Positions 5,864 through 24,940 of a stretch of 64,000 nt of DNA are shown here, piece after piece. The stretch comes from Spirosoma sp. KCTC 42546 (lineage in GTDB: Bacteria; Bacteroidota; Bacteroidia; Cytophagales; Spirosomataceae). Location of the stretch: NCBI RefSeq assembly GCF_006965485.1, contig NZ_CP041360.1:5560501-5624500 (forward strand), written 5' to 3'. Made by a program: the position numbers and the translations under genes. Within the stretch, counting starts at the first letter, position 1. Each line of letters begins with the position of its first letter. The notes beneath the pieces were generated by a model that was given only the letters and a program-made list of their open reading frames with translations, was not told the origin of the DNA and did not search any database.

Positions 5864-5877
5864 GTGATAAATGTCAC
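5864..5877. promoter_or_regulatory. Crp/Fnr-type palindrome upstream of rhodanese gene
   Basis: GTGATAAATGTCAC fits GTGAY-N4-RTYAC, as do three other sites in this cluster. Its centre is 62 bases before the rhodanese start and 36.5 bases before the end of a -7-like box (TAGCTTTA, 5900-5907). This puts it near -42, the class II activator position. Confidence 0.65.
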
Positions 5878-5899
5878 AGACTGTCAATACCATGGAGAA

Positions 5900-5907
5900 T
5901 AGCTTTA
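5900..5907 (+). promoter_or_regulatory. Probable -7 box for rhodanese gene
   Basis: TAGCTTTA matches the Bacteroidota -7 consensus TAnnTTTG at all fixed positions but the last. No TTG element lies at -33; the palindrome at 5864-5877 occupies that region, as expected for an activator-dependent promoter. Confidence 0.5.
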
Positions 5908-5932
5908 CCTCAGCATACGAAAAACGAAGCCA

Positions 5933-6238
5933 ATGATACATCTATTGAAATCCATATTCGGCAGTGCCGATACCAGCAACATTGAGGAAGTACTCGCAAA
6001 GGGAGCTATTATTATTGACGTCCGCTCGGCCGGTGAGTTTGCCTCGGGTCACGCCAAAGGGGCTGTTAACATTCCCCTCGATCAGTTAGAGTCAAAGCTT
6101 TACAAGATCAAAAGCTACCAGAAACCACTCGTACTTTGCTGTGCTTCGGGCATGCGAAGTGCCCGAGCCAAATCGTTTCTGGCAGATCAGGGAATAGCCG
6201 ATCTGCACGATGCCGGTAGCTGGCGAAATTTGAAGTAA
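5933..6238 (+). CDS. Single-domain rhodanese (sulfurtransferase)
   Basis: A 101-residue protein with one rhodanese fold. Rhodaneses carry sulfane sulfur as a persulfide on an active-site cysteine. That residue is Cys70 in the loop CASGMRS, which fits the C-x4-R-[ST] active-site pattern, and IDVRSAGEF near residue 28 is the usual N-terminal rhodanese motif. There is no signal peptide, so it is cytoplasmic. It is the only gene of the sulfur cluster on the forward strand and faces the OsmC gene, sharing a bidirectional terminator. It likely moves sulfur between persulfide pools and the persulfide dioxygenase-like enzyme nearby. A Crp/Fnr-type site precedes it. Confidence 0.92.
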   Translation: MIHLLKSIFGSADTSNIEEVLAKGAIIIDVRSAGEFASGHAKGAVNIPLDQLESKLYKIKSYQKPLVLCCASGMRSARAKSFLADQGIADLHDAGSWRNLK

Positions 6239-6257
6239 ACAATTTCAGGTACTTATC

Positions 6258-6302
6258 ATCAACAAAAAATGCGGACTGGATTAGCCCGCATTTTTTGTTG
6301 AT
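6258..6302. terminator. Bidirectional terminator between rhodanese and OsmC genes
   Basis: Perfect 17-base arms (6258-6274 and 6286-6302) surround an 11-base loop. Each arm holds a run of six A or T, so the hairpin reads as a terminator on both strands between two convergent genes. Confidence 0.9.
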
Positions 6303-6324
6303 CGTTTCTGTGATGAAACATCCT

Positions 6325-6774
6325 CTAGTCATACTCTTTAAGGACTACCCGAATCGTAGGTTGTACGCTTACCTGCGACCGGACTGAATAACTGATCAGG
6401 CAGGCCTTTTCTGCTTTTAGTAGTACGCGATCCGCTTTTTCCACGTCGCCTTCATCAATTAATAGCAATTTCGGGAACAGCTTAATTTCCGATATCATCA
6501 GCGTATTGTCTACAGTTTCCAGTTTACCAACGGCCCGGCAATCGAAATCATCGAAGTCAAGCTTAGCGTTTTCGGCAATAGCCAGAAAGGTTGTCATGAA
6601 ACAACTCGAAACTGAAGCTACCAGCAAGTGCTCCGGCGACCAGACACCGGGCATTCCCTTCGGGAATTCAGGGGGTGTAGCCACATCAATATTTTCGTTT
6701 AAAACGGGAGAGCTTAACTGCCCCAAACGGGCATATTGCCAGCCCAAATTGACTTCATAATAGTGGGTTTCCAT
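6325..6774 (-). CDS. OsmC/Ohr family protein
   Basis: A 149-residue OsmC-fold protein. The family reduces organic hydroperoxides or acts on related thiol species using two cysteines; both are present, in the VSSCFMTTFL segment and in EKACLISYSV. The motif PEHLLVASVSSC is typical of OsmC. It lies 38 bases downstream of the persulfide dioxygenase-like gene on the same strand and is probably cotranscribed with it, suggesting a role in peroxide or reactive sulfur stress. Its length is normal for the family. Whether it is closer to OsmC or Ohr cannot be decided by eye. Confidence 0.88.
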   Translation of the reverse strand: METHYYEVNLGWQYARLGQLSSPVLNENIDVATPPEFPKGMPGVWSPEHLLVASVSSCFMTTFLAIAENAKLDFDDFDCRAVGKLETVDNTLMISEIKLFPKLLLIDEGDVEKADRVLLKAEKACLISYSVRSQVSVQPTIRVVLKEYD

Positions 6775-6812
6775 ACTATCCAGTCGTGAAGATGACTATT
6801 GCTAACTAGTTA

Positions 6813-8225
6813 CTACAGGAGGGTTGTTGGACAAACGTAATCCGTAAGCGGGAGTTTACCCGTTTGCTTGATGGCGGCAAAACCACCCGCTACATTGATC
6901 AGATTGGTGAATCCACGCGCTTTTAGGATAGATAGAGCAACCATAGAGCGATACCCACCCGCGCAATGCACATAGTATGTTTTGGTGCGGTCGATACGCG
7001 CCATGTTTTCGTTGATGAAGTCGAGCGGCAAATTCTCTACGCCTACGATATGCTCCGAATCGTACTCACTCTTCCGCCGGACATCCAATACTGGCAAGTT
7101 GGGATTCTGATTGAAAAGGGTAGCAAAGGTTTCGGCCGTTATCGACGGAATTGTATCGACCTCCCGGCCATCGGCCTGCCAGGCCGTAAACCCACCGGTC
7201 AAATAGCCAATGCAGTTATCGTAACCTACGCGTGCTAACCGCAACACGGCCTCTTCCTCTTTACCTTCGGGAGCTACAAGCAGTATAGGCTGGTTTAAAT
7301 CAGGAATCAACGTGCCGACCCAGCCCGCGAATTGCCCTTCCAGGCCAATATTTATCGCGCTGGAAATGAAGCCTTTGGCAAAGTTCTGTGTGTCCCGAAC
7401 GTCCAGAATCAGGGCATCCACTTCATTGGCTGCGGCTTCAAAAGCAGCGGGCGATAATGCCTGCGTTCCCTGTTGGATTACCTCATCAATAGCGCTATAC
7501 CCCAGTTTGTTCATCACCGCATTTTTAGGGAAATACTGCGGAGGAGGCACAAGCCCGGTGGTTACTTCGTTAATAAAGGCCTCTTTGCTTTGCGCGCGTA
7601 AGGCATAATTAAACCGCTTTTGATTACCCAGCGTGTCGGACGTTTCCTTACTCATGTTCTTGCCGCAGGCCGATCCAGCCCCATGACCGGGGTAAACAAT
7701 CACATCGTCGGGCAGGGTCATGATTTTGGTATGCAGACTATCGTAAAGATACCCGGCCAGGTCTTCGCGCGAAAGGTCAGTTTTAATGGCCAGGTCAGGT
7801 CGGCCAACATCGCCAATGAACAGGGTATCGCCCGTGAAGATGGCCGTTTCTTTACCCGCTTCATCAAGCAGTAAAAATGACGACGACTCCATGGTGTGAC
7901 CGGGCGTGTGTAGCACCCTGATTTTAACTTTTCCTACCGAAAACTCCTCACCGTCTTTGGCAACATACGCTTCATAACCCGGTTGAGCTGTAGGGCCAAA
8001 AACGATTGTTGCTCCGGTTTTTGCCGCCAGGTCCAGGTGGCCTGATACAAAATCGGCGTGGAAGTGGGTTTCAAAAACGTATTTGATGGTTGCTCCATCT
8101 TCCTTCGCCCGATCCGTGTAGGGTTTGGTTTCACGAAGCGGATCAATAATGGCAGCCTCCCCTTCCGATTCAATGTAATAGGCTGCCTCAGCCAGACATC
8201 CGGTATAAATCTGCTCGATTTTCAT
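6813..8225 (-). CDS. Persulfide dioxygenase-like MBL hydrolase fused to two rhodanese domains
   Basis: A 470-residue protein. Residues 1 to about 240 are a metallo-beta-lactamase fold of the ETHE1/persulfide dioxygenase type: HFHADFVSGH, HTPGHTMES, GDTLFIGDVGRPDL and YPGHGAGSACG supply the iron ligands and substrate pocket. Two rhodanese domains follow. The first (ILDVRDTQNF) lacks an active-site Cys, while the second has HCAGGYRS with the catalytic Cys. Such fusions oxidise persulfides to sulfite. I start at the ATG at 8225 rather than the in-frame ATG at 8255, because AAGGGGAAA stands just upstream and MKIEQIY is the usual N terminus. It probably heads an operon with OsmC. A Crp/Fnr-type site lies 65 bases upstream. 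Confidence 0.92.
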   Translation of the reverse strand: MKIEQIYTGCLAEAAYYIESEGEAAIIDPLRETKPYTDRAKEDGATIKYVFETHFHADFVSGHLDLAAKTGATIVFGPTAQPGYEAYVAKDGEEFSVGKVKIRVLHTPGHTMESSSFLLLDEAGKETAIFTGDTLFIGDVGRPDLAIKTDLSREDLAGYLYDSLHTKIMTLPDDVIVYPGHGAGSACGKNMSKETSDTLGNQKRFNYALRAQSKEAFINEVTTGLVPPPQYFPKNAVMNKLGYSAIDEVIQQGTQALSPAAFEAAANEVDALILDVRDTQNFAKGFISSAINIGLEGQFAGWVGTLIPDLNQPILLVAPEGKEEEAVLRLARVGYDNCIGYLTGGFTAWQADGREVDTIPSITAETFATLFNQNPNLPVLDVRRKSEYDSEHIVGVENLPLDFINENMARIDRTKTYYVHCAGGYRSMVALSILKARGFTNLINVAGGFAAIKQTGKLPLTDYVCPTTLL

Positions 8226-8282
8226 GACTTTCCCCTTGTTAAATTGGTAAGTCAAAATTGGAAATCTGGCCGGGGTTGTTCA

Positions 8283-8296
8283 GTGATATTTGTTAC
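8283..8296. promoter_or_regulatory. Crp/Fnr-type palindrome upstream of persulfide dioxygenase-like gene
   Basis: GTGATATTTGTTAC fits GTGAY-N4-RTYAC. Read on the reverse strand, a -7-like box CAATTTTG ends 36.5 bases from its centre, the same distance as at the rhodanese promoter. The site overlaps the last codons of the YeeE/YedE gene ending at 8293, implying a promoter within the cluster. Confidence 0.65.
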
Positions 8297-8802
8297 AAAC
8301 CGGACGTGATTATTATCAGGTTAATGCGGTAATTTTTCCATACATACCCATACACCCAGGTACCGGCAATGGCACTCAGCAGGGTAACGAGTACCACAAC
8401 GTATCCACTGCCGATCTGGGCAAACAAAGGTCCAGGACAGGCACCCGTGATCGCCCAGCCCAGGCCAAACAGCAATCCACCGTAGATTTGCCCCCGATTG
8501 AATGGTTTAGGATGAAACTCAATTGGTTCGCCTGATAAAGTTTTGATTTTAAACCGTTTGATTAACCAGACGGAGATCATGCCAACCACCACGGCCGATC
8601 CAATAACACCGTACATGTGGAAACTTTGCAGCCGGAACATCTCCTGAATCCGAAACCACGAAATGATTTCGGCTTTCACAAACACAATGCCGAACAGAAT
8701 ACCGACAATCAGGTATTTACTAGTAGCCAGGCCCGTTTCCGGCTTCTTCATGTCGTTGGGCGCATCGCACGCCACTACGTCGGGGAATTCATCTACTTGC
8801 AT
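8293..8802 (-). CDS. YeeE/YedE family half-transporter (second half)
   Basis: A 169-residue membrane protein with about four hydrophobic helices. It has the signature ITGACPGPLFAQIGSG, whose Cys is conserved in YeeE/YedE (thiosulfate/sulfur) transporters. The frame is open to 8946, but the ATG at 8802 is preferred: it leaves 11 bases after the preceding gene, whereas the longer form would overlap it and begin with an unrelated polar stretch. With the gene at 8814-9386 it forms a split YeeE/YedE unit like PmpA/PmpB. Likely role: uptake or export of sulfur species across the inner membrane. Confidence 0.85.
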   Translation of the reverse strand: MQVDEFPDVVACDAPNDMKKPETGLATSKYLIVGILFGIVFVKAEIISWFRIQEMFRLQSFHMYGVIGSAVVVGMISVWLIKRFKIKTLSGEPIEFHPKPFNRGQIYGGLLFGLGWAITGACPGPLFAQIGSGYVVVLVTLLSAIAGTWVYGYVWKNYRINLIIITSGL

Positions 8803-8813
8803 AGCCCACTCGG

Positions 8814-9386
8814 TTAAACTAATTTCATCAGATAAGGAAGAATCAACTGGGTCATGGCAAAACCGCCAATCATAAAGCAACAGGTTGCCACGAGCGACGG
8901 CCATTGCAGGTTCGACAAGCCCATAATGGAATGGCCCGAGGTGCATCCTCCCGCCCAGCGAGTACCGAAACCCACCAGAAACCCACCGACCACGAAGAAG
9001 AAGAAGCCTTTTAGGGTAAACAGGTTCTCTACGCTGAATAAATCGGCAGGCATCAGGCCCGAAAAATCATGAATACCCAAAGCCTGTAAATCCGCAACGG
9101 TGGCTGGTGCAAGCTGAATTGGATCAGGGTTGTATAAGAACTGAGTGGCCAGAAATCCACCAATGAGTATACCAGCAACGAAAATCAGGTTCCAGATCTC
9201 GTTTTTCCAGTTGTAATGAAAGAACGGAAGATTAGCGGGCAGGCAGGCGGCACATATATGCCGTAGTGATGAGGAGATACCAAATGACTTACTGCCGATC
9301 AATAATAAGGTGGGAACGGTAAGCCCAATCAGTGGTCCAGCCACATACCAGGGCCAGGGTTTTCGGATGAGGTCAATAAACTCCAT
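8814..9386 (-). CDS. YeeE/YedE family half-transporter (first half)
   Basis: A 190-residue membrane protein with several hydrophobic helices and the conserved motif WAGGCTSGHSIMGL. Its Cys corresponds to the sulfur-relay cysteines of YeeE/YedE transporters. Two further cysteines lie in HICAACLPAN near residue 44. It is followed after 11 bases by the partner half gene, so the two are almost certainly cotranscribed and assemble into one transporter. It lies 108 bases downstream of the DUF2892 gene, with no separate Crp/Fnr-type site in that gap, suggesting it belongs to that transcript. Confidence 0.87.
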   Translation of the reverse strand: MEFIDLIRKPWPWYVAGPLIGLTVPTLLLIGSKSFGISSSLRHICAACLPANLPFFHYNWKNEIWNLIFVAGILIGGFLATQFLYNPDPIQLAPATVADLQALGIHDFSGLMPADLFSVENLFTLKGFFFFVVGGFLVGFGTRWAGGCTSGHSIMGLSNLQWPSLVATCCFMIGGFAMTQLILPYLMKLV

Positions 9387-9494
9387 GCAATTGATTTATT
9401 TATACGTGCTAGCTAAGTGGTATACGTAGTTGGGCTACGCAAGATTCCATCAAACACAAGCCATTTCATTGCGCTTACTAGCTAGTGAATCCGT

Positions 9495-9701
9495 TTATTT
9501 TTTCGACCTGTTAGTTCGAATACCAAAAGGCAAATAAAGTGGGCATGTACTTACCAGGCTTGTCAGGATAAACACACCCGCCAGAACCAGACTGACAATA
9601 CCCCAAACGCCTGTTAGGACACTAGTTGCGTATAAGCCAATGAGGACACTAGCAATAACGATTCGGAGTGTCCGATCAATAGAACCCATGTTCTTTTTCA
9701 T
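9495..9701 (-). CDS. DUF2892 (YgaP-type) small membrane protein
   Basis: A 68-residue protein with two transmembrane helices. It begins MKKNMGSIDRTLRI, the typical start of DUF2892/YgaP transmembrane domains, and ends with a short inner-membrane tail. In other bacteria this domain is fused to or encoded beside rhodaneses, and its function is thought to involve sulfur or thiocyanate handling. Here it is the first gene of the transcript that probably continues into the two YeeE/YedE halves. A Crp/Fnr-type palindrome is centred 54 bases upstream of the start. Confidence 0.88.
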   Translation of the reverse strand: MKKNMGSIDRTLRIVIASVLIGLYATSVLTGVWGIVSLVLAGVFILTSLVSTCPLYLPFGIRTNRSKK

Positions 9702-9748
9702 GATGTTGGTTTTTCTGACGAAGGAACCGCTTTCTTTTGCTGAATTCA

Positions 9749-9762
9749 GTGATTTTTATCAC
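9749..9762. promoter_or_regulatory. Crp/Fnr-type palindrome upstream of DUF2892 gene
   Basis: GTGATTTTTATCAC is a perfect palindrome of form GTGAT-N4-ATCAC, the best of the four sites in this cluster. At the same distance as in the two clearest promoters lies TTCCTTCG, which keeps four of six fixed positions of the -7 box. Confidence 0.7.
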
Positions 9763-9796
9763 ATAGCACTACGATTCTGAGACAAGTACGAAATGG

Positions 9797-10600
9797 TTAG
9801 AGCAGCGTCTCCTTAAGAATAATGTATACGCCCATCACTAGCACAAAGTACCCGAAGGCTTTCTTCAGTTTGTGACTGGACACAAAGCGAGCCAGATAAG
9901 ACCCAACAAAAATTCCAACCACAGAAAGCGCCGTGAATTCGAGCAGAAATGGCCAATCGACAGCCATGTTTGACAGGTCGCCAAGAAAACCGGTTAGTGA
10001 TTTCACCGCAATAATCAGCAGGGAGGTACCCACCGCTGTTTTCATGGGCAAGCGGGCCAATAGCACCAGGGCTGGTATGATTAAAAAGCCACCGCCAGCC
10101 CCTACTAGTCCGGTGAGGGCACCTACGAACATACCTTCCAGAGCAATCAATGGCAGATTGAATTGAATCGGACCATCAGGCTTGTTGACTTCCGCTTTTT
10201 TATCCCGAATCATACTCACCGAGGCTGCCAGCATAATCAGGGCGAAGAACACCATGATGGCCACGTTTTTGCTCAGTGTAAACGTATCTGTCGAAAAAAC
10301 AGGGTCGGGGATAAGGGTCACCAGATACTTACGGGTCACATAAACGGTGAGCAGCGAAGGAATGGAAAAAACGATAGCCGCTTTGTAATTGATCTGGTGT
10401 TGCCGCATGTAATTAACCGACCCAACCAGCGAGGTCATGCCCACAACAAACAGGGAATAAGCCGTAGACAGCATGGGATTAACGCCCAACAAATAGACGA
10501 GTACGGGCAGCGTCAGAATACTACCCCCTCCACCAATCAAACCCAGACTGACCCCGATTATAATGGACGCAGAAAAGCCCGCTACTTGCAGTGAAGTCAT
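9797..10600 (-). CDS. TauE/SafE family sulfite/sulfur-anion exporter
   Basis: A 267-residue integral membrane protein with seven or eight hydrophobic helices arranged as two repeats. The glycine-rich GLIGGGGSILTLPVL in the first half is echoed by GLVGAGGGFLIIPALV in the second, the signature of TauE/SafE (DUF81) exporters. The family exports sulfite, sulfoacetate or similar anions. In this cluster it would remove the sulfite made by the persulfide dioxygenase-like enzyme. It lies directly after the Crp/Fnr gene (82 bases apart, same strand) but has its own Crp/Fnr-type site in the gap. Confidence 0.9.
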   Translation of the reverse strand: MTSLQVAGFSASIIIGVSLGLIGGGGSILTLPVLVYLLGVNPMLSTAYSLFVVGMTSLVGSVNYMRQHQINYKAAIVFSIPSLLTVYVTRKYLVTLIPDPVFSTDTFTLSKNVAIMVFFALIMLAASVSMIRDKKAEVNKPDGPIQFNLPLIALEGMFVGALTGLVGAGGGFLIIPALVLLARLPMKTAVGTSLLIIAVKSLTGFLGDLSNMAVDWPFLLEFTALSVVGIFVGSYLARFVSSHKLKKAFGYFVLVMGVYIILKETLL

Positions 10601-10649
10601 ACACGCTTACTTTTTTAAGCGAAATACGTTCTTCCCGTTTTGCTCTTCC

Positions 10650-10663
10650 GTGACAATTGTTAC
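10650..10663. promoter_or_regulatory. Crp/Fnr-type palindrome upstream of TauE/SafE gene
   Basis: GTGACAATTGTTAC fits GTGAY-N4-RTYAC; its centre is 56 bases before the start codon. A partial -7-like element, TATTTCG, lies at about the same distance as in the other promoters. The site is 20 bases from the stop of the Crp/Fnr gene. Confidence 0.6.
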
Positions 10664-10682: not shown

Positions 10683-11321
10683 TTAGCCCAACATTGTTAT
10701 TTTATTCCGCATCAGTTGAATTTGCCCATCCTTTTCCAACTGCTTTAACAAACGGGAAATTACCTCTCGGGAGGTGGCCAGTTCCTGCGCAATCTCTTCG
10801 TGGGTAATGTTCAGTACGGTACACTGGCAACTGGCTACTTTTTTTTGAAGGTACGTGAGCAGGCGCTCATCCAGTTTATGGAAAATCACCTCGTCAATTG
10901 TCTCCAGTAGGTTATCGAACCGCTTTTGGTAGGTTTGAAACACAAACTGTTTCCAGGTTGAGTACTGGCATAACCAGGTATCCACCTTATCTACGGGCAC
11001 CGCAATCAGTTCGGTTTCCTCGTCAACAACAGCCGTAATTTCACTGCGCTTGTTGCCCAGGCAACAGGTCAGCGACATGGCACAGGCATCCAGTCCGCCC
11101 AGGTAATAGAGTAATGCCTCACGCCCTTCCTGATCAGGGCGCATAATTTTGACCGATCCCCGAATAATTATGGGTACCGAACGAATGTACTCACCCGGCC
11201 GAATCAGATAAGCGCCAACGGGTACAAGCTTGTGCTGCCCAACTTCAGTCAGTTCCTGAAGAAGCGCGTACTCAAATCGACTACCAAGTGCTTGCTGTAA
11301 ATAATCGACTGTCAGTTTCAT
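10683..11321 (-). CDS. Crp/Fnr family transcriptional regulator, cysteine-rich
   Basis: A 212-residue regulator: cyclic-nucleotide-binding-like beta-roll (about 20-115), dimer helix (about 125-160) and winged helix-turn-helix (about 171-212). The recognition helix reads SREVISRLLKQL (from residue 184); its R-E-x-x-x-R pattern matches that of E. coli CRP, which contacts GTGA half-sites. This agrees with the GTGAY-N4-RTYAC palindromes nearby. The usual cAMP-binding residues are not evident. Instead it has Cys80, Cys86 and Cys87 (DACAMSLTCC) plus Cys165 and Cys167, which could sense persulfide or redox state. It most likely activates the adjacent sulfur genes. The sensing chemistry is inference. 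Confidence 0.9.
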   Translation of the reverse strand: MKLTVDYLQQALGSRFEYALLQELTEVGQHKLVPVGAYLIRPGEYIRSVPIIIRGSVKIMRPDQEGREALLYYLGGLDACAMSLTCCLGNKRSEITAVVDEETELIAVPVDKVDTWLCQYSTWKQFVFQTYQKRFDNLLETIDEVIFHKLDERLLTYLQKKVASCQCTVLNITHEEIAQELATSREVISRLLKQLEKDGQIQLMRNKITMLG

Positions 11322-11396: not shown

Positions 11397-11978
11397 TCAA
11401 AACGTCGGGATGAGCATGGGAACCCGTTGCCGGTACTGTATATACTGACTCCCAAATTCCCGAATCAGCTTTTGTTCCTCAAAGTGAATTCCGATCCGCA
11501 GATAAGCGAACGCCAGTAAATCAAACAGGAGATGCTTCCAGTTAGGCTGGTAAATAAGCAGGCCAATCAGGATCAGAAGTATTCCCAGATAGAGCGGGTG
11601 GCGGACAAGGCGTAGCAGTCCATCTTGCCGAAATGATCCGTCTGCTGCCGACTGATGGCGAACTGGCCAGCCAATAAATTCGGCAAGATCATACTGTTTA
11701 AACGACAACAACCCAATGAGCACACCTGCGCTAATCAGGAGCCCACCCACCCAAAGCGAGCCATCCCAATTAGTAAAAAGCGGATCAATCGGGGCTGCCC
11801 GAAGCGTGAATAAAACAGGCAAAAATGTAATCAGAGAAAAACCAGTATACGCCAGTCGGTAATAGGATTTGGGGAGCCCAATTATCGTTATTACCCAATG
11901 TTTGAACCACAAGCTTGCCGTAACACTATGGAGTGTGCCAAACAAAATCCAGCTGATTGCCAGTAAACCGTAACCCAT
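11397..11978 (-). CDS. NnrU/isoprenylcysteine methyltransferase-like membrane protein
   Basis: A 193-residue protein with about five hydrophobic helices. The C-terminal motif RHPLYLGILL, followed by FEEQKLIREFGSQYIQYRQ and a final VPMLIP, is the signature of the ICMT/PEMT-like membrane methyltransferase superfamily, which includes NnrU-like proteins. Such proteins use S-adenosylmethionine to methylate lipids, thiols or prenylated substrates, but the substrate here is unknown. It lies 75 bases upstream of the Crp/Fnr gene on the same strand and 56 bases downstream of the MscS channel gene. No Crp/Fnr-type site was found before it, so membership in the sulfur regulon is uncertain. Confidence 0.75.
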   Translation of the reverse strand: MGYGLLAISWILFGTLHSVTASLWFKHWVITIIGLPKSYYRLAYTGFSLITFLPVLFTLRAAPIDPLFTNWDGSLWVGGLLISAGVLIGLLSFKQYDLAEFIGWPVRHQSAADGSFRQDGLLRLVRHPLYLGILLILIGLLIYQPNWKHLLFDLLAFAYLRIGIHFEEQKLIREFGSQYIQYRQRVPMLIPTF

Positions 11979-23401: not shown

Positions 23402-24940
23402 ATGAATGTACGCTTTACCGATGAATCGTCTGAGTTACTCCAGACACTCGTAGAGACTTCACTTACAAATACCTATGTAGCCAGAGCCGTGCGCGATCCA
23501 GCTACTGGTCAGATCACCGACTTTCGCATTACGCTTGTAAATACCCAGTTTCAGAAGTGGATTGGTTCTTCGGTCGAAGAATTACAAGCGACTACCTTGC
23601 TAACGCTATTTCCTCAATTCGCCCAGCTGGTACTATTTGCCCACTACATAGAGGTGGTCGAAACCGGCCAGACGTACCAGGGTGAAGATTATCACCCCTT
23701 CCGAAACGGCAATGCTATGGACTGGTTTACCCTGTCGGTGCGTAAACAGGGCGATGGGATTATGGTCAATTTCCTCGGTATTCCAGCGGAGCAGCTGAAA
23801 CTGCAGCGACAAGCGGAACAGCTCCGTGCTACACTGGATGCATCGCTCAACAGTATTTTTTACATGAAAGCCGTTCGTGACGACCAAACCGGACAGATCA
23901 TTGATTTCCTGATTGAGTTTTCCAACCAGGCCGTTCTGAGTAGCACAAACTTAAAGCCCGAGGAAGTTATTGGTCAGCGATTGCTGGAAAAATTTCCGGG
24001 TAATAAGGAAAATGGTTTTTTCGACTCGTATGTACGCGTAGTGGAAACAGGTCAGCCGGAACAAATGACCCAACCCTACCGAGATGAGTTAGGCTTAGAG
24101 GGCTGGTTTCAAATATCGGCCGTTCGCCATGATCGGGATAATGTGGTGGTCACGTTTATGAACATTACAGAAAGTAAGCAAATTGAACAGCAACTTCGGG
24201 AGTCGAATACCAGCCTTGAGCAATTTGCCTCCGTAGCCAGCCACGATTTGCAGGAACCCCTCCGAAAAATACAGTTGTTTAGTACTGCCTTAGTCGATCA
24301 ATATGGTACTGCTCTTGGTAAAGGAGTCGACTTACTCAAGAAAATGCAATCGACAACCGAGCGTATGCAGTCACTCATTCGGGATTTATTAGACTACTCC
24401 CGGCTGTCAAAAGGTGATGACACAAGACATCAGCTAGTGGAGTTACCCAAACTTGTTGAGGAGGTTCTCATTGATCTTGAACTGGCGGTGCAGGAAAAAG
24501 GAGCATCCATAGAGGTTGGCAACCTACCCACACTGATGGGTAATGCATTGCAACTACGCCAGGTATTTCAGAATTTGATCTCCAATGGGCTAAAATTTAG
24601 CAAACCAGGCCAGGCACCGCACATCAGGATCACAAGCGAGAAAAAGGGACGAACCGAACTACCCGCCGATGTTCGGTTGCCGGGCTTACCAGGGCAATAC
24701 TATTGGCAAATTAAGGTACGTGATCAGGGAATTGGCTTTGATGAAGCGTATCGAGAGAAGATTTTCGGCGCGTTTGAACGGCTACACGGCCGTAGTAGTG
24801 CGTACAAAGGATCGGGTATTGGCCTGGCTATTGTTCGCAAAGTGATGACCAATCACCATGGCCTCGTTGTTGCCCATAGCCGCGAGGGAGCAGGAGCAAC
24901 GTTCACGTTGTACTTCCCGATCACAGAGCCGGATAGTTAA
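23402..24940 (+). CDS. Cytoplasmic PAS-PAS histidine kinase
   Basis: A 512-residue kinase with no membrane helix. Two related PAS domains (about 10-130 and 140-265) share the segment ARAVRDPATGQITDF / MKAVRDDQTGQIIDF, so one arose by duplication. Then come the H-box VASHDLQEPLRKI (His near residue 280) and an ATPase domain with FQNLISNGLKFSK, DQGIGFDEAY and GSGIGLAIV. The H-box form HDLQEPLRKI is that of phytochrome-like bacterial kinases. No response regulator is adjacent, so it is an orphan kinase. Signal unknown. Confidence 0.9.
   Translation: MNVRFTDESSELLQTLVETSLTNTYVARAVRDPATGQITDFRITLVNTQFQKWIGSSVEELQATTLLTLFPQFAQLVLFAHYIEVVETGQTYQGEDYHPFRNGNAMDWFTLSVRKQGDGIMVNFLGIPAEQLKLQRQAEQLRATLDASLNSIFYMKAVRDDQTGQIIDFLIEFSNQAVLSSTNLKPEEVIGQRLLEKFPGNKENGFFDSYVRVVETGQPEQMTQPYRDELGLEGWFQISAVRHDRDNVVVTFMNITESKQIEQQLRESNTSLEQFASVASHDLQEPLRKIQLFSTALVDQYGTALGKGVDLLKKMQSTTERMQSLIRDLLDYSRLSKGDDTRHQLVELPKLVEEVLIDLELAVQEKGASIEVGNLPTLMGNALQLRQVFQNLISNGLKFSKPGQAPHIRITSEKKGRTELPADVRLPGLPGQYYWQIKVRDQGIGFDEAYREKIFGAFERLHGRSSAYKGSGIGLAIVRKVMTNHHGLVVAHSREGAGATFTLYFPITEPDS

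What the first reader, a model, noticed from the sequence alone, without database searches (positions are those of the whole stretch)
5864..10663. A four-site Crp/Fnr regulon for sulfur genes, with the regulator in the same cluster
Sites at 5864, 8283, 9749 and 10650 all fit GTGAY-WWWT-RTYACANA. Each centre is 54-65 bases before a start codon. In the two clearest cases (rhodanese, persulfide dioxygenase-like gene) the centre is exactly 36.5 bases from the end of a -7-like box, i.e. near -42, and the other two keep partial boxes at about the same phase. The Crp/Fnr protein encoded beside them has the helix SREVISR, which matches the CRP type that reads GTGA. Together this predicts a class II activator controlling four promoters.
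Basis: partly seen in the sequence, partly recalled or inferred. Interest (0 to 1): 0.8.

Follow-up and report, generated by a model that had tools for sequence, protein, structure and literature searches.

The report
Sulfur-gene activator and its regulon
A bacterial gene switch of the CRP type sits beside sulfur-handling genes that it very probably turns on through four matching DNA sites; the same switch, sites and spacing recur in many relatives, and the sites change when the DNA-reading part of the switch changes.

Summary
The 17-base motif has four exact matches in the 8.66-Mb genome, all in this cluster; it was drawn from those four, so relatives are the real test. In 80 hand-picked family neighbourhoods plus the window the palindrome occurs 156 times, against 8 for the reversed pattern in the 80. 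A TAnnTTTG -7 box ends 36.5 bp from the centre in 61 of 92 de-duplicated sites (300 shuffles: at most 5 at any offset). This puts the centre at -41.5: class II geometry. Regulator and site co-vary: with Glu at the CRP-181 position the sites read RTCAC (58 of 62 loci), with Val RTTAC/RTARC-like (25 of 26). In Alphaproteobacteria, related regulators, many beside similar sulfur genes, have a site one base pair shorter (69 copies in 80 loci), with the RNA-polymerase-side half in the same register. Cys80 is invariant in 121 of 121 Bacteroidota regulators aligned. DNA binding, activation and a persulfide signal are inferred, not shown. Ten paper searches found no such CRP/FNR sulfur regulon, but the library omits most subscription journals.

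The parts
10683..11321 (-). Crp/Fnr-family regulator, 212 aa; recognition helix SREVISR; Cys80, Cys86, Cys87
   Evidence: Pfam cNMP_binding and HTH_Crp_2 above cut-off; alignment of 121 homologues; AF2 model pLDDT 88.7
10650..10663 (-). site before tauE, centre 10656.5, 56.5 bp from the start codon
10620..10627 (-). partial -7 box GTATTTCG in register
   Evidence: read
9797..10600 (-). TauE/SafE family membrane protein
   Evidence: Pfam TauE
9749..9762 (-). site before the YgaP-TM gene, centre 9755.5, 54.5 bp from the start codon
9719..9726 (-). partial -7 box TTCCTTCG in register
   Evidence: read
9495..9701 (-). YgaP-like transmembrane protein (DUF2892 type)
   Evidence: Pfam YgaP-like_TM
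8814..9386 (-). YeeE/YedE-type sulfur transport protein, one half
   Evidence: Pfam Sulf_transp
8293..8799 (-). YeeE/YedE-type sulfur transport protein, other half (DUF6691)
   Evidence: Pfam Sulf_transp, DUF6691
8283..8296 (-). site before the PDO-type gene, centre 8289.5, 64.5 bp from ATG 8225; overlaps the 3' end of the YeeE gene
8253..8260 (-). -7 box CAATTTTG
   Evidence: read
6813..8225 (-). persulfide-dioxygenase-type protein (metallo-beta-lactamase plus two rhodanese stretches)
   Evidence: Pfam Lactamase_B and Rhodanese; NCBIfam bifunctional ST/SDO match far below its cut-off, so the name rests on architecture
6325..6774 (-). OsmC-family protein
   Evidence: Pfam OsmC
5864..5877 (+). 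site before the rhodanese gene, centre 5870.5, 62.5 bp from the start codon
5900..5907 (+). -7 box TAGCTTTA
   Evidence: read
5933..6238 (+). single-domain rhodanese
   Evidence: Pfam Rhodanese

Best explanation
The Crp/Fnr protein at 10683-11321 is the local activator of a sulfane-sulfur handling regulon. As a dimer it binds the 14-bp palindrome GTRAY-N4-RTYAC, centred at -41.5 of four promoters (tauE; YgaP-TM with, probably, the two YeeE halves; PDO with, probably, OsmC; rhodanese), takes the place of the missing -33 element and recruits sigmaA RNA polymerase to the -7 box (class II). The half-site on the RNA-polymerase side (RTCACnGA) is the well-kept one. The signal is most likely persulfide or polysulfide reacting at Cys80, in most members together with a second Cys six or seven residues further on. 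Shown by sequence comparison: sites, fixed promoter geometry, co-variation of helix and site, invariant Cys80. Inferred: direct binding, activation rather than repression, operon membership, the sulfur signal and the Cys chemistry.
For: Only exact genome matches are these four. Strict palindrome 156 in 81 sequences against 8 for the reversed pattern in 80 loci. -7 box ends at +36.5 in 61 of 92 sites with <=1 mismatch, 21 exact, <=3 at any other offset; 300 shuffles gave at most 5; sigmaA -7 box is -12 to -5 (PMC9723704). Half-site spacing N4: 89 against <=7 at the ten other spacings (0-10) in 87 Glu-type loci. Glu/Val-site co-variation: gene-linked sites have C at the tested pair in 102 of 109 (Glu) and A/T in 27 of 30 (Val); by locus 58 of 62 and 25 of 26. 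CRP Glu181 contacts that base pair (PMC11253593, passages). Own genome has no other homologue at E<=0.001. Genes after sites in relatives are mainly PDO/rhodanese, TauE, YgaP-TM, with SoxA/TsdA-type cytochrome, SQR-like, SulP, DsrE. Cys80 in 121 of 121.
Against: No experiment. Two of the window's own four -7 boxes have 2 and 3 mismatches. 60 of 200 family genomes have no homologue at E<=1e-20. 20 of 87 Glu loci and 4 of 32 Val loci have no site with a -7 box of <=1 mismatch. 4 of 62 Glu loci and 1 of 26 Val loci go against the co-variation, and only 2 pairs on well-supported branches are independent. 17 of 121 regulators have no Cys at 86 or 87 although several lie by sulfur genes, so a dithiol mechanism cannot hold for all. 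Some site-linked genes have no evident sulfur role (DUF983, a porin-like and a TolC-like protein).
Confidence: 0.8

Rival explanations
1. Same regulator, sites and class II mechanism, but the signal is not sulfane sulfur: oxygen, general thiol or redox stress, a metal or a nucleotide, with sulfur genes as the main targets.
For: CRP/FNR proteins sense many signals (general knowledge). 17 of 121 lack a Cys at 86/87. Some site-linked genes have no evident sulfur role.
Against: Site-linked genes are mostly sulfur genes and the regulator is beside such genes in two phyla. Cys80 invariant in 121 of 121 is suggestive only. No N-terminal FNR-type Cys set before Cys80 (sequence).
Confidence: 0.3
2. The sites belong to another CRP/FNR protein of the same cell and the neighbouring regulator is a bystander.
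For: Other Crp/Fnr-like genes exist, e.g. beside the 1-mismatch place at L065. GTGA/TCAC is the general CRP site.
Against: The base at the contacted pair follows the helix residue of the neighbouring regulator; the sites cluster beside it; no second close homologue in the genome.
Confidence: 0.05
3. The regulator represses (or both represses and activates) from these sites.
For: CRP/FNR proteins can repress (general knowledge).
Against: One fixed distance to the -7 box and no -33 TTG, and the same register to the -10 box in Alphaproteobacteria, fit class II activation; sites of repressors usually vary in position (general knowledge).
Confidence: 0.1
4. The four sites are a chance pattern picked by eye.
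For: The consensus was made from the sites; at 2 mismatches it is at background genome-wide, as is the core.
Against: Spacing peak, promoter register and helix-site co-variation in relatives.
Confidence: 0.01

Closest known systems
E. coli CRP (CAP) at class II promoters
   Same: Fold (Foldseek hits with TM-score about 0.8), helix R-E-x-x-x-R, GTGA/TCAC half-sites with the CRP spacing, centre at -41.5 (class II position of CRP recalled)
   Different: Local sulfur regulon; Cys in the effector domain where CRP binds cAMP (recalled); Bacteroidota -7 box instead of -10; asymmetric site with a weak far half
FisR (sigma54 activator) and BigR/SqrR (ArsR repressors), CstR (CsoR type)
   Same: Control similar genes (PDO, SQR, TauE, YeeE/YedE) in response to persulfide (PMC7315123 passages; PMC9774590 passages)
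   Different: Unrelated protein families; the ArsR and CsoR ones are repressors
Acinetobacter baumannii Crp, reported as a persulfidation target
   Same: A CRP-type protein carrying persulfide (PMC7315123 abstract passage)
   Different: Reported as a modified global regulator, not as the regulator of the sulfide genes
RedB of Rhodobacter capsulatus
   Same: A recently characterised CRP/FNR subgroup from Alphaproteobacteria
   Different: 12-bp non-palindromic AT-rich motif and a global energy regulon (PMC9603854: abstract, section 5 and passages). Sequence not compared here
Eubacterium rectale EUBREC_1222 (PDB 3dv8)
   Same: Best solved relative by sequence (E 5e-20) and fold; also has C-x5-C at this place (alignment)
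   Different: Structural-genomics entry by its title; I saw no function for it

Membership tests
CRP/FNR superfamily | N-terminal cNMP-type effector domain plus C-terminal Crp-type helix-turn-helix | tested here: met
   Pfam cNMP_binding, HTH_Crp_2 and Crp above cut-off; fold search
Class II CRP/FNR-dependent promoters | Palindromic site centred at about -41.5 with the core promoter box in fixed register | tested here: met
   +36.5 register in 61 of 92 sites with the -7 box at -12 to -5; transcription starts not mapped in this genome
Class II CRP/FNR-dependent promoters | Transcription activated by the bound regulator | not testable with these tools
   needs expression data
cAMP-CRP (E. coli type) | Effector is cAMP | not tested
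   match to NCBIfam CRP equivalog 50 bits against a cut-off of 266; the ligand pocket was not examined
FNR (Fe-S oxygen sensor) | N-terminal cluster of Cys ligands | tested here: not met
   no Cys before residue 80 (sequence)
Persulfide-sensing SqrR/BigR/CstR | ArsR or CsoR fold | tested here: not met
   Pfam and fold are CRP/FNR
Persulfide-responsive regulators (functional class) | Response to persulfide or polysulfide through Cys | not testable with these tools
   only Cys80 conservation, 121 of 121

The most novel reading that the evidence does not exclude
A cross-phylum CRP/FNR subfamily is the main local activator of sulfane-sulfur handling in Bacteroidota and Alphaproteobacteria, and it holds two natural experiments. 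A Glu-to-Val change at the CRP-181 position re-specifies the regulon from GTGAY/RTCAC to GTAAC/GTTAC-like sites. And the half-site spacing is one base pair shorter in Alphaproteobacteria (N3) than in Bacteroidota (N4) with the same recognition helix, while the RNA-polymerase-side half stays at -39 to -35 in both.
Probability: 0.6. Interest if true: 0.75.

Novelty: new variant of a known kind. Interest (0 to 1): 0.62.

Why it matters
It offers a candidate sulfide/persulfide regulator for Bacteroidota, where the regulators of such genes that I saw in print are ArsR, CsoR or sigma54 proteins of other bacteria. It fixes a class II activator geometry on the unusual Bacteroidota promoter. It is also a natural, testable case of a CRP-type protein and its regulon changing DNA specificity, and half-site spacing, together.

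Tried and rejected
First window scan used a wrong 19-base pattern; replaced by the 17-mer. One-mismatch genome places as further regulon members: among the listed ORFs of L062, L065 and L066 I recognised no sulfur gene by eye; L063 and L067 were seen only as 160 bases each. Autoregulation: I see no site in the 199 bases before the regulator's start (printed). RedB as a name for this family: motif and regulon differ. Ten answered paper searches (cap reached) found no CRP/FNR sulfur regulon of this kind; the term 'Crp/Fnr' with its slash cannot be searched and most subscription papers are missing, so this absence is weak. Two papers on CRP regulators and evolution were not held. The AF2 model gave no Cys-Cys distances and is least confident at residues 81-90. 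A PHROGs scan gave one weak match of unknown function.

Selection to keep in mind. The 80 family loci (of 140 genomes with a match) and 40 phylum loci (of 154 genomes) were picked by hand from the listings, mostly best-scoring plus some distant ones. Sites fell from 156 to 124 that could be oriented to 92 after a 70% identity filter, and the window's own sites went into that set. The Glu/Val test used one degenerate pattern with a -7 box of <=2 mismatches: 232 sites in 120 loci (174 Glu, 55 Val, 3 Ala), reversed-pattern control 26, 9 and 0. The by-locus table leaves out loci with no site or a tie; the window was entered by hand as Glu with C, so the call shows 59 of 63 where I give 58 of 62. 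One search ended with an error in its last listing loop, after the counts I use had been printed. In one search, 3 of 80 loci gave no regulator frame and 17 of 77 no N3 site within 330 bases of the stop. The -10 weights are recalled.
Full report
What is there. On the minus strand the cluster holds a Crp/Fnr gene (10683-11321), TauE/SafE (9797-10600), a YgaP-like TM protein (9495-9701), two YeeE/YedE-type halves (8814-9386, 8293-8799), a metallo-beta-lactamase plus double-rhodanese protein of persulfide-dioxygenase type (6813-8225) and an OsmC protein (6325-6774); a rhodanese gene (5933-6238) lies on the plus strand. The window is part of a single-contig 8.66-Mb genome. A same-genus genome, G167, has a regulator copy on a 146,936-base contig at the coordinates of plasmid pSLIN02 of Spirosoma linguale DSM 74, so the window is most likely from Spirosoma (inference).

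Observation. At 2 mismatches, and for the bare core GTGAYN4RTYAC, the genome is at background. Because the consensus came from these sites, I turned to relatives.

Relatives. A homologue at E<=1e-20 is in 140 of 200 family genomes, and at E<=1e-15 in 154 of 395 genomes drawn from the phylum. I read 80 family neighbourhoods, chosen by hand. Sulfur genes recur beside the regulator in many but not all of them; 20 of the 80 showed no other cluster gene in the listing. GTGAYN4RTCAC with at most one mismatch occurs 284 times against 81 for the reversed pattern in 1.55 Mb; the stricter form 156 times (window included) against 8. 124 could be oriented to a start codon and 92 stayed after removing near-duplicates.

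Promoter geometry. In the 92, the strongest signal outside the site is a TAnnTTTG-like box whose last base is 36.5 bp from the site centre: 61 with at most one mismatch (21 exact), no more than 3 at any other offset; 300 shuffles gave at most 5. TTG shows no peak at the -33 distance. The sigmaA -7 box of Flavobacterium psychrophilum is at -12 to -5 (PMC9723704, passages), which puts the centre at -41.5. The start codon is a median 64.5 bp away. The half on the polymerase side, RTCACnGA, is nearly invariant; the far half is GTAA in 40 and GTGA in 52 of the 92.

Which protein binds. Residue 186 aligns, by the R-E-x-x-x-R motif, with CRP Glu181, which contacts the C of the second G:C pair of TGTGA (PMC11253593, passages). 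Of 121 regulators 88 have Glu, 32 Val and 1 Ala there. With one common pattern and box rule, gene-linked sites have C at that pair in 102 of 109 (Glu) and A or T in 27 of 30 (Val). By locus it is 58 of 62 and 25 of 26 (window left out). Without any box rule, GTGAY-N4-RTCAC occurs 89 times in 87 Glu loci and 6 times in 32 Val loci; GTAAY-N4-RTTAC 40 times in Val loci and 14 times in Glu loci. The single Ala locus has mixed GTGAC/GTAGC sites. The tree, built without the helix columns, needs 5 Glu/Val changes, at least 2 on well-supported branches; the 2 independent pairs agree, too few for significance. I recall that CAP mutants at residue 181 showed the same specificity change; I could not check this in held papers. 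This co-variation is my main reason to think that this protein uses these sites.

Targets and signal. Mechanically chosen reading frames after 201 of 232 sites fall into groups by BLAST: PDO/rhodanese 68, TauE 40, YgaP-TM 23, SoxA/TsdA-type cytochrome c 9, DUF983 8, a porin-like protein 7 (not scanned), the regulator itself 6, SQR-like 4, SulP 4, DsrE 4, YeeE 3, a TolC-like protein 3 (not scanned), SorA-like 2, OsmC 1, and singletons. Six groups were named from one representative each; SulP, DsrE, DUF983 and the SoxA/TsdA domain pass a curated cut-off, SQR and SorA do not. Cys80 is invariant in 121 of 121; 104 have a second Cys at 86 or 87 and 17 do not. In the AlphaFold2 model Cys80 stands just before a helix (81-89), in the least confident stretch (mean pLDDT 65). 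A sulfane-sulfur signal is my inference.

Beyond Bacteroidota. Plasmid-borne homologues of 27-32% identity and their kin lie beside DUF2892 genes: of 11 loci that I fetched, 11 have DUF2892 downstream and 8 an MBL-fold (PDO-like) gene, most with YeeE, DUF6691, a sulfur transferase/FAD oxidoreductase and SulP; Thiothrix and Azospirillum lack these in the stretch seen. All 11 have GTRAY-N3-RTYAC within 110 bases before DUF2892, one base pair shorter than in Bacteroidota. In 80 further loci, Alphaproteobacterial by their titles, GTGAY-N3-RTCAC occurs 69 times, N4 5 times, N10 14 times and the other spacings at most 5 times. Of 77 readable regulators 60 have an N3 site within 330 bases of the stop, 4 an N4 one; 76 keep C-x5-C and 77 Glu-Val, the helix and first Cys being partly selected by the search patterns. 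The -10 hexamer starts 29 bases from the centre: score 22.7 against none of 2000 shuffles in the 11, 111.7 against a shuffle maximum of 76.9 in 500 for 53 de-duplicated loci. So the centre is at -41 and the polymerase-side half at -39 to -35, as in Bacteroidota; the far half has moved by one base pair. I know of no CRP/FNR protein described with that spacing (recalled, not searched).

Literature. A review of bacterial reactive-sulfur regulators names CstR, SqrR and BigR; FNR does not occur in it and Crp only in two references (PMC9774590, passages). Acinetobacter uses FisR and BigR for such genes and lists its Crp among persulfidated proteins (PMC7315123, passages). RedB is another CRP/FNR subgroup with a different motif (PMC9603854). 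A 2025 study of CRP/FNR DNA-binding domains finds base-contacting residues largely conserved (PMC12531629, abstract and passages). Ten paper searches did not find this regulon; coverage is limited.

Verdict. The finding is real and its interpretation well supported. The most interesting parts lie outside its coordinates: the natural specificity change and the one-base spacing shift.

Noticed in passing
L237-L239, L242-L249 and L250-L329 (Proteobacteria): Related regulators have a 13-bp site (N3) instead of the 14-bp Bacteroidota site (N4), with the polymerase-side half in the same promoter register.
   Followed up: partly
L149-L155, L162 and Val-type loci among L197-L236: Regulators with ARVVVSR/SRVVISR-type helices go with GTAAC-N4-GTTAC-like sites.
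   Followed up: yes
window 11397-11978, minus strand: A PEMT/NnrU-like membrane methyltransferase lies just upstream of the regulator; its best NCBIfam match is methanethiol S-methyltransferase MddA, far below the cut-off (74.5 against 270 bits). It recurs beside the regulator in some relatives.
   Followed up: no
L065 (G000:C1, about 6287200): Beside another Crp-like ORF stands TTGACTTTTGTCAC with a TACTTTTG box one base off the register; the gene after it is not an evident sulfur gene.
   Followed up: no
L240 (Spirosoma linguale pSLIN02): A full copy of the regulator-TauE-PDO-YeeE cluster lies on a plasmid labelled mobilizable, next to a Tn3-family transposase gene; G039 has three regulator copies.
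   Followed up: no
relatives, e.g. L103:7146 and L099:12798: A small DUF983 membrane protein is a recurrent site-linked gene (group of 8; Pfam), a possible further member of the response with unknown role.
   Followed up: no
window 23682-23695: A one-mismatch palindrome GTGAAGATTATCAC; its surroundings were not looked at.
   Followed up: no
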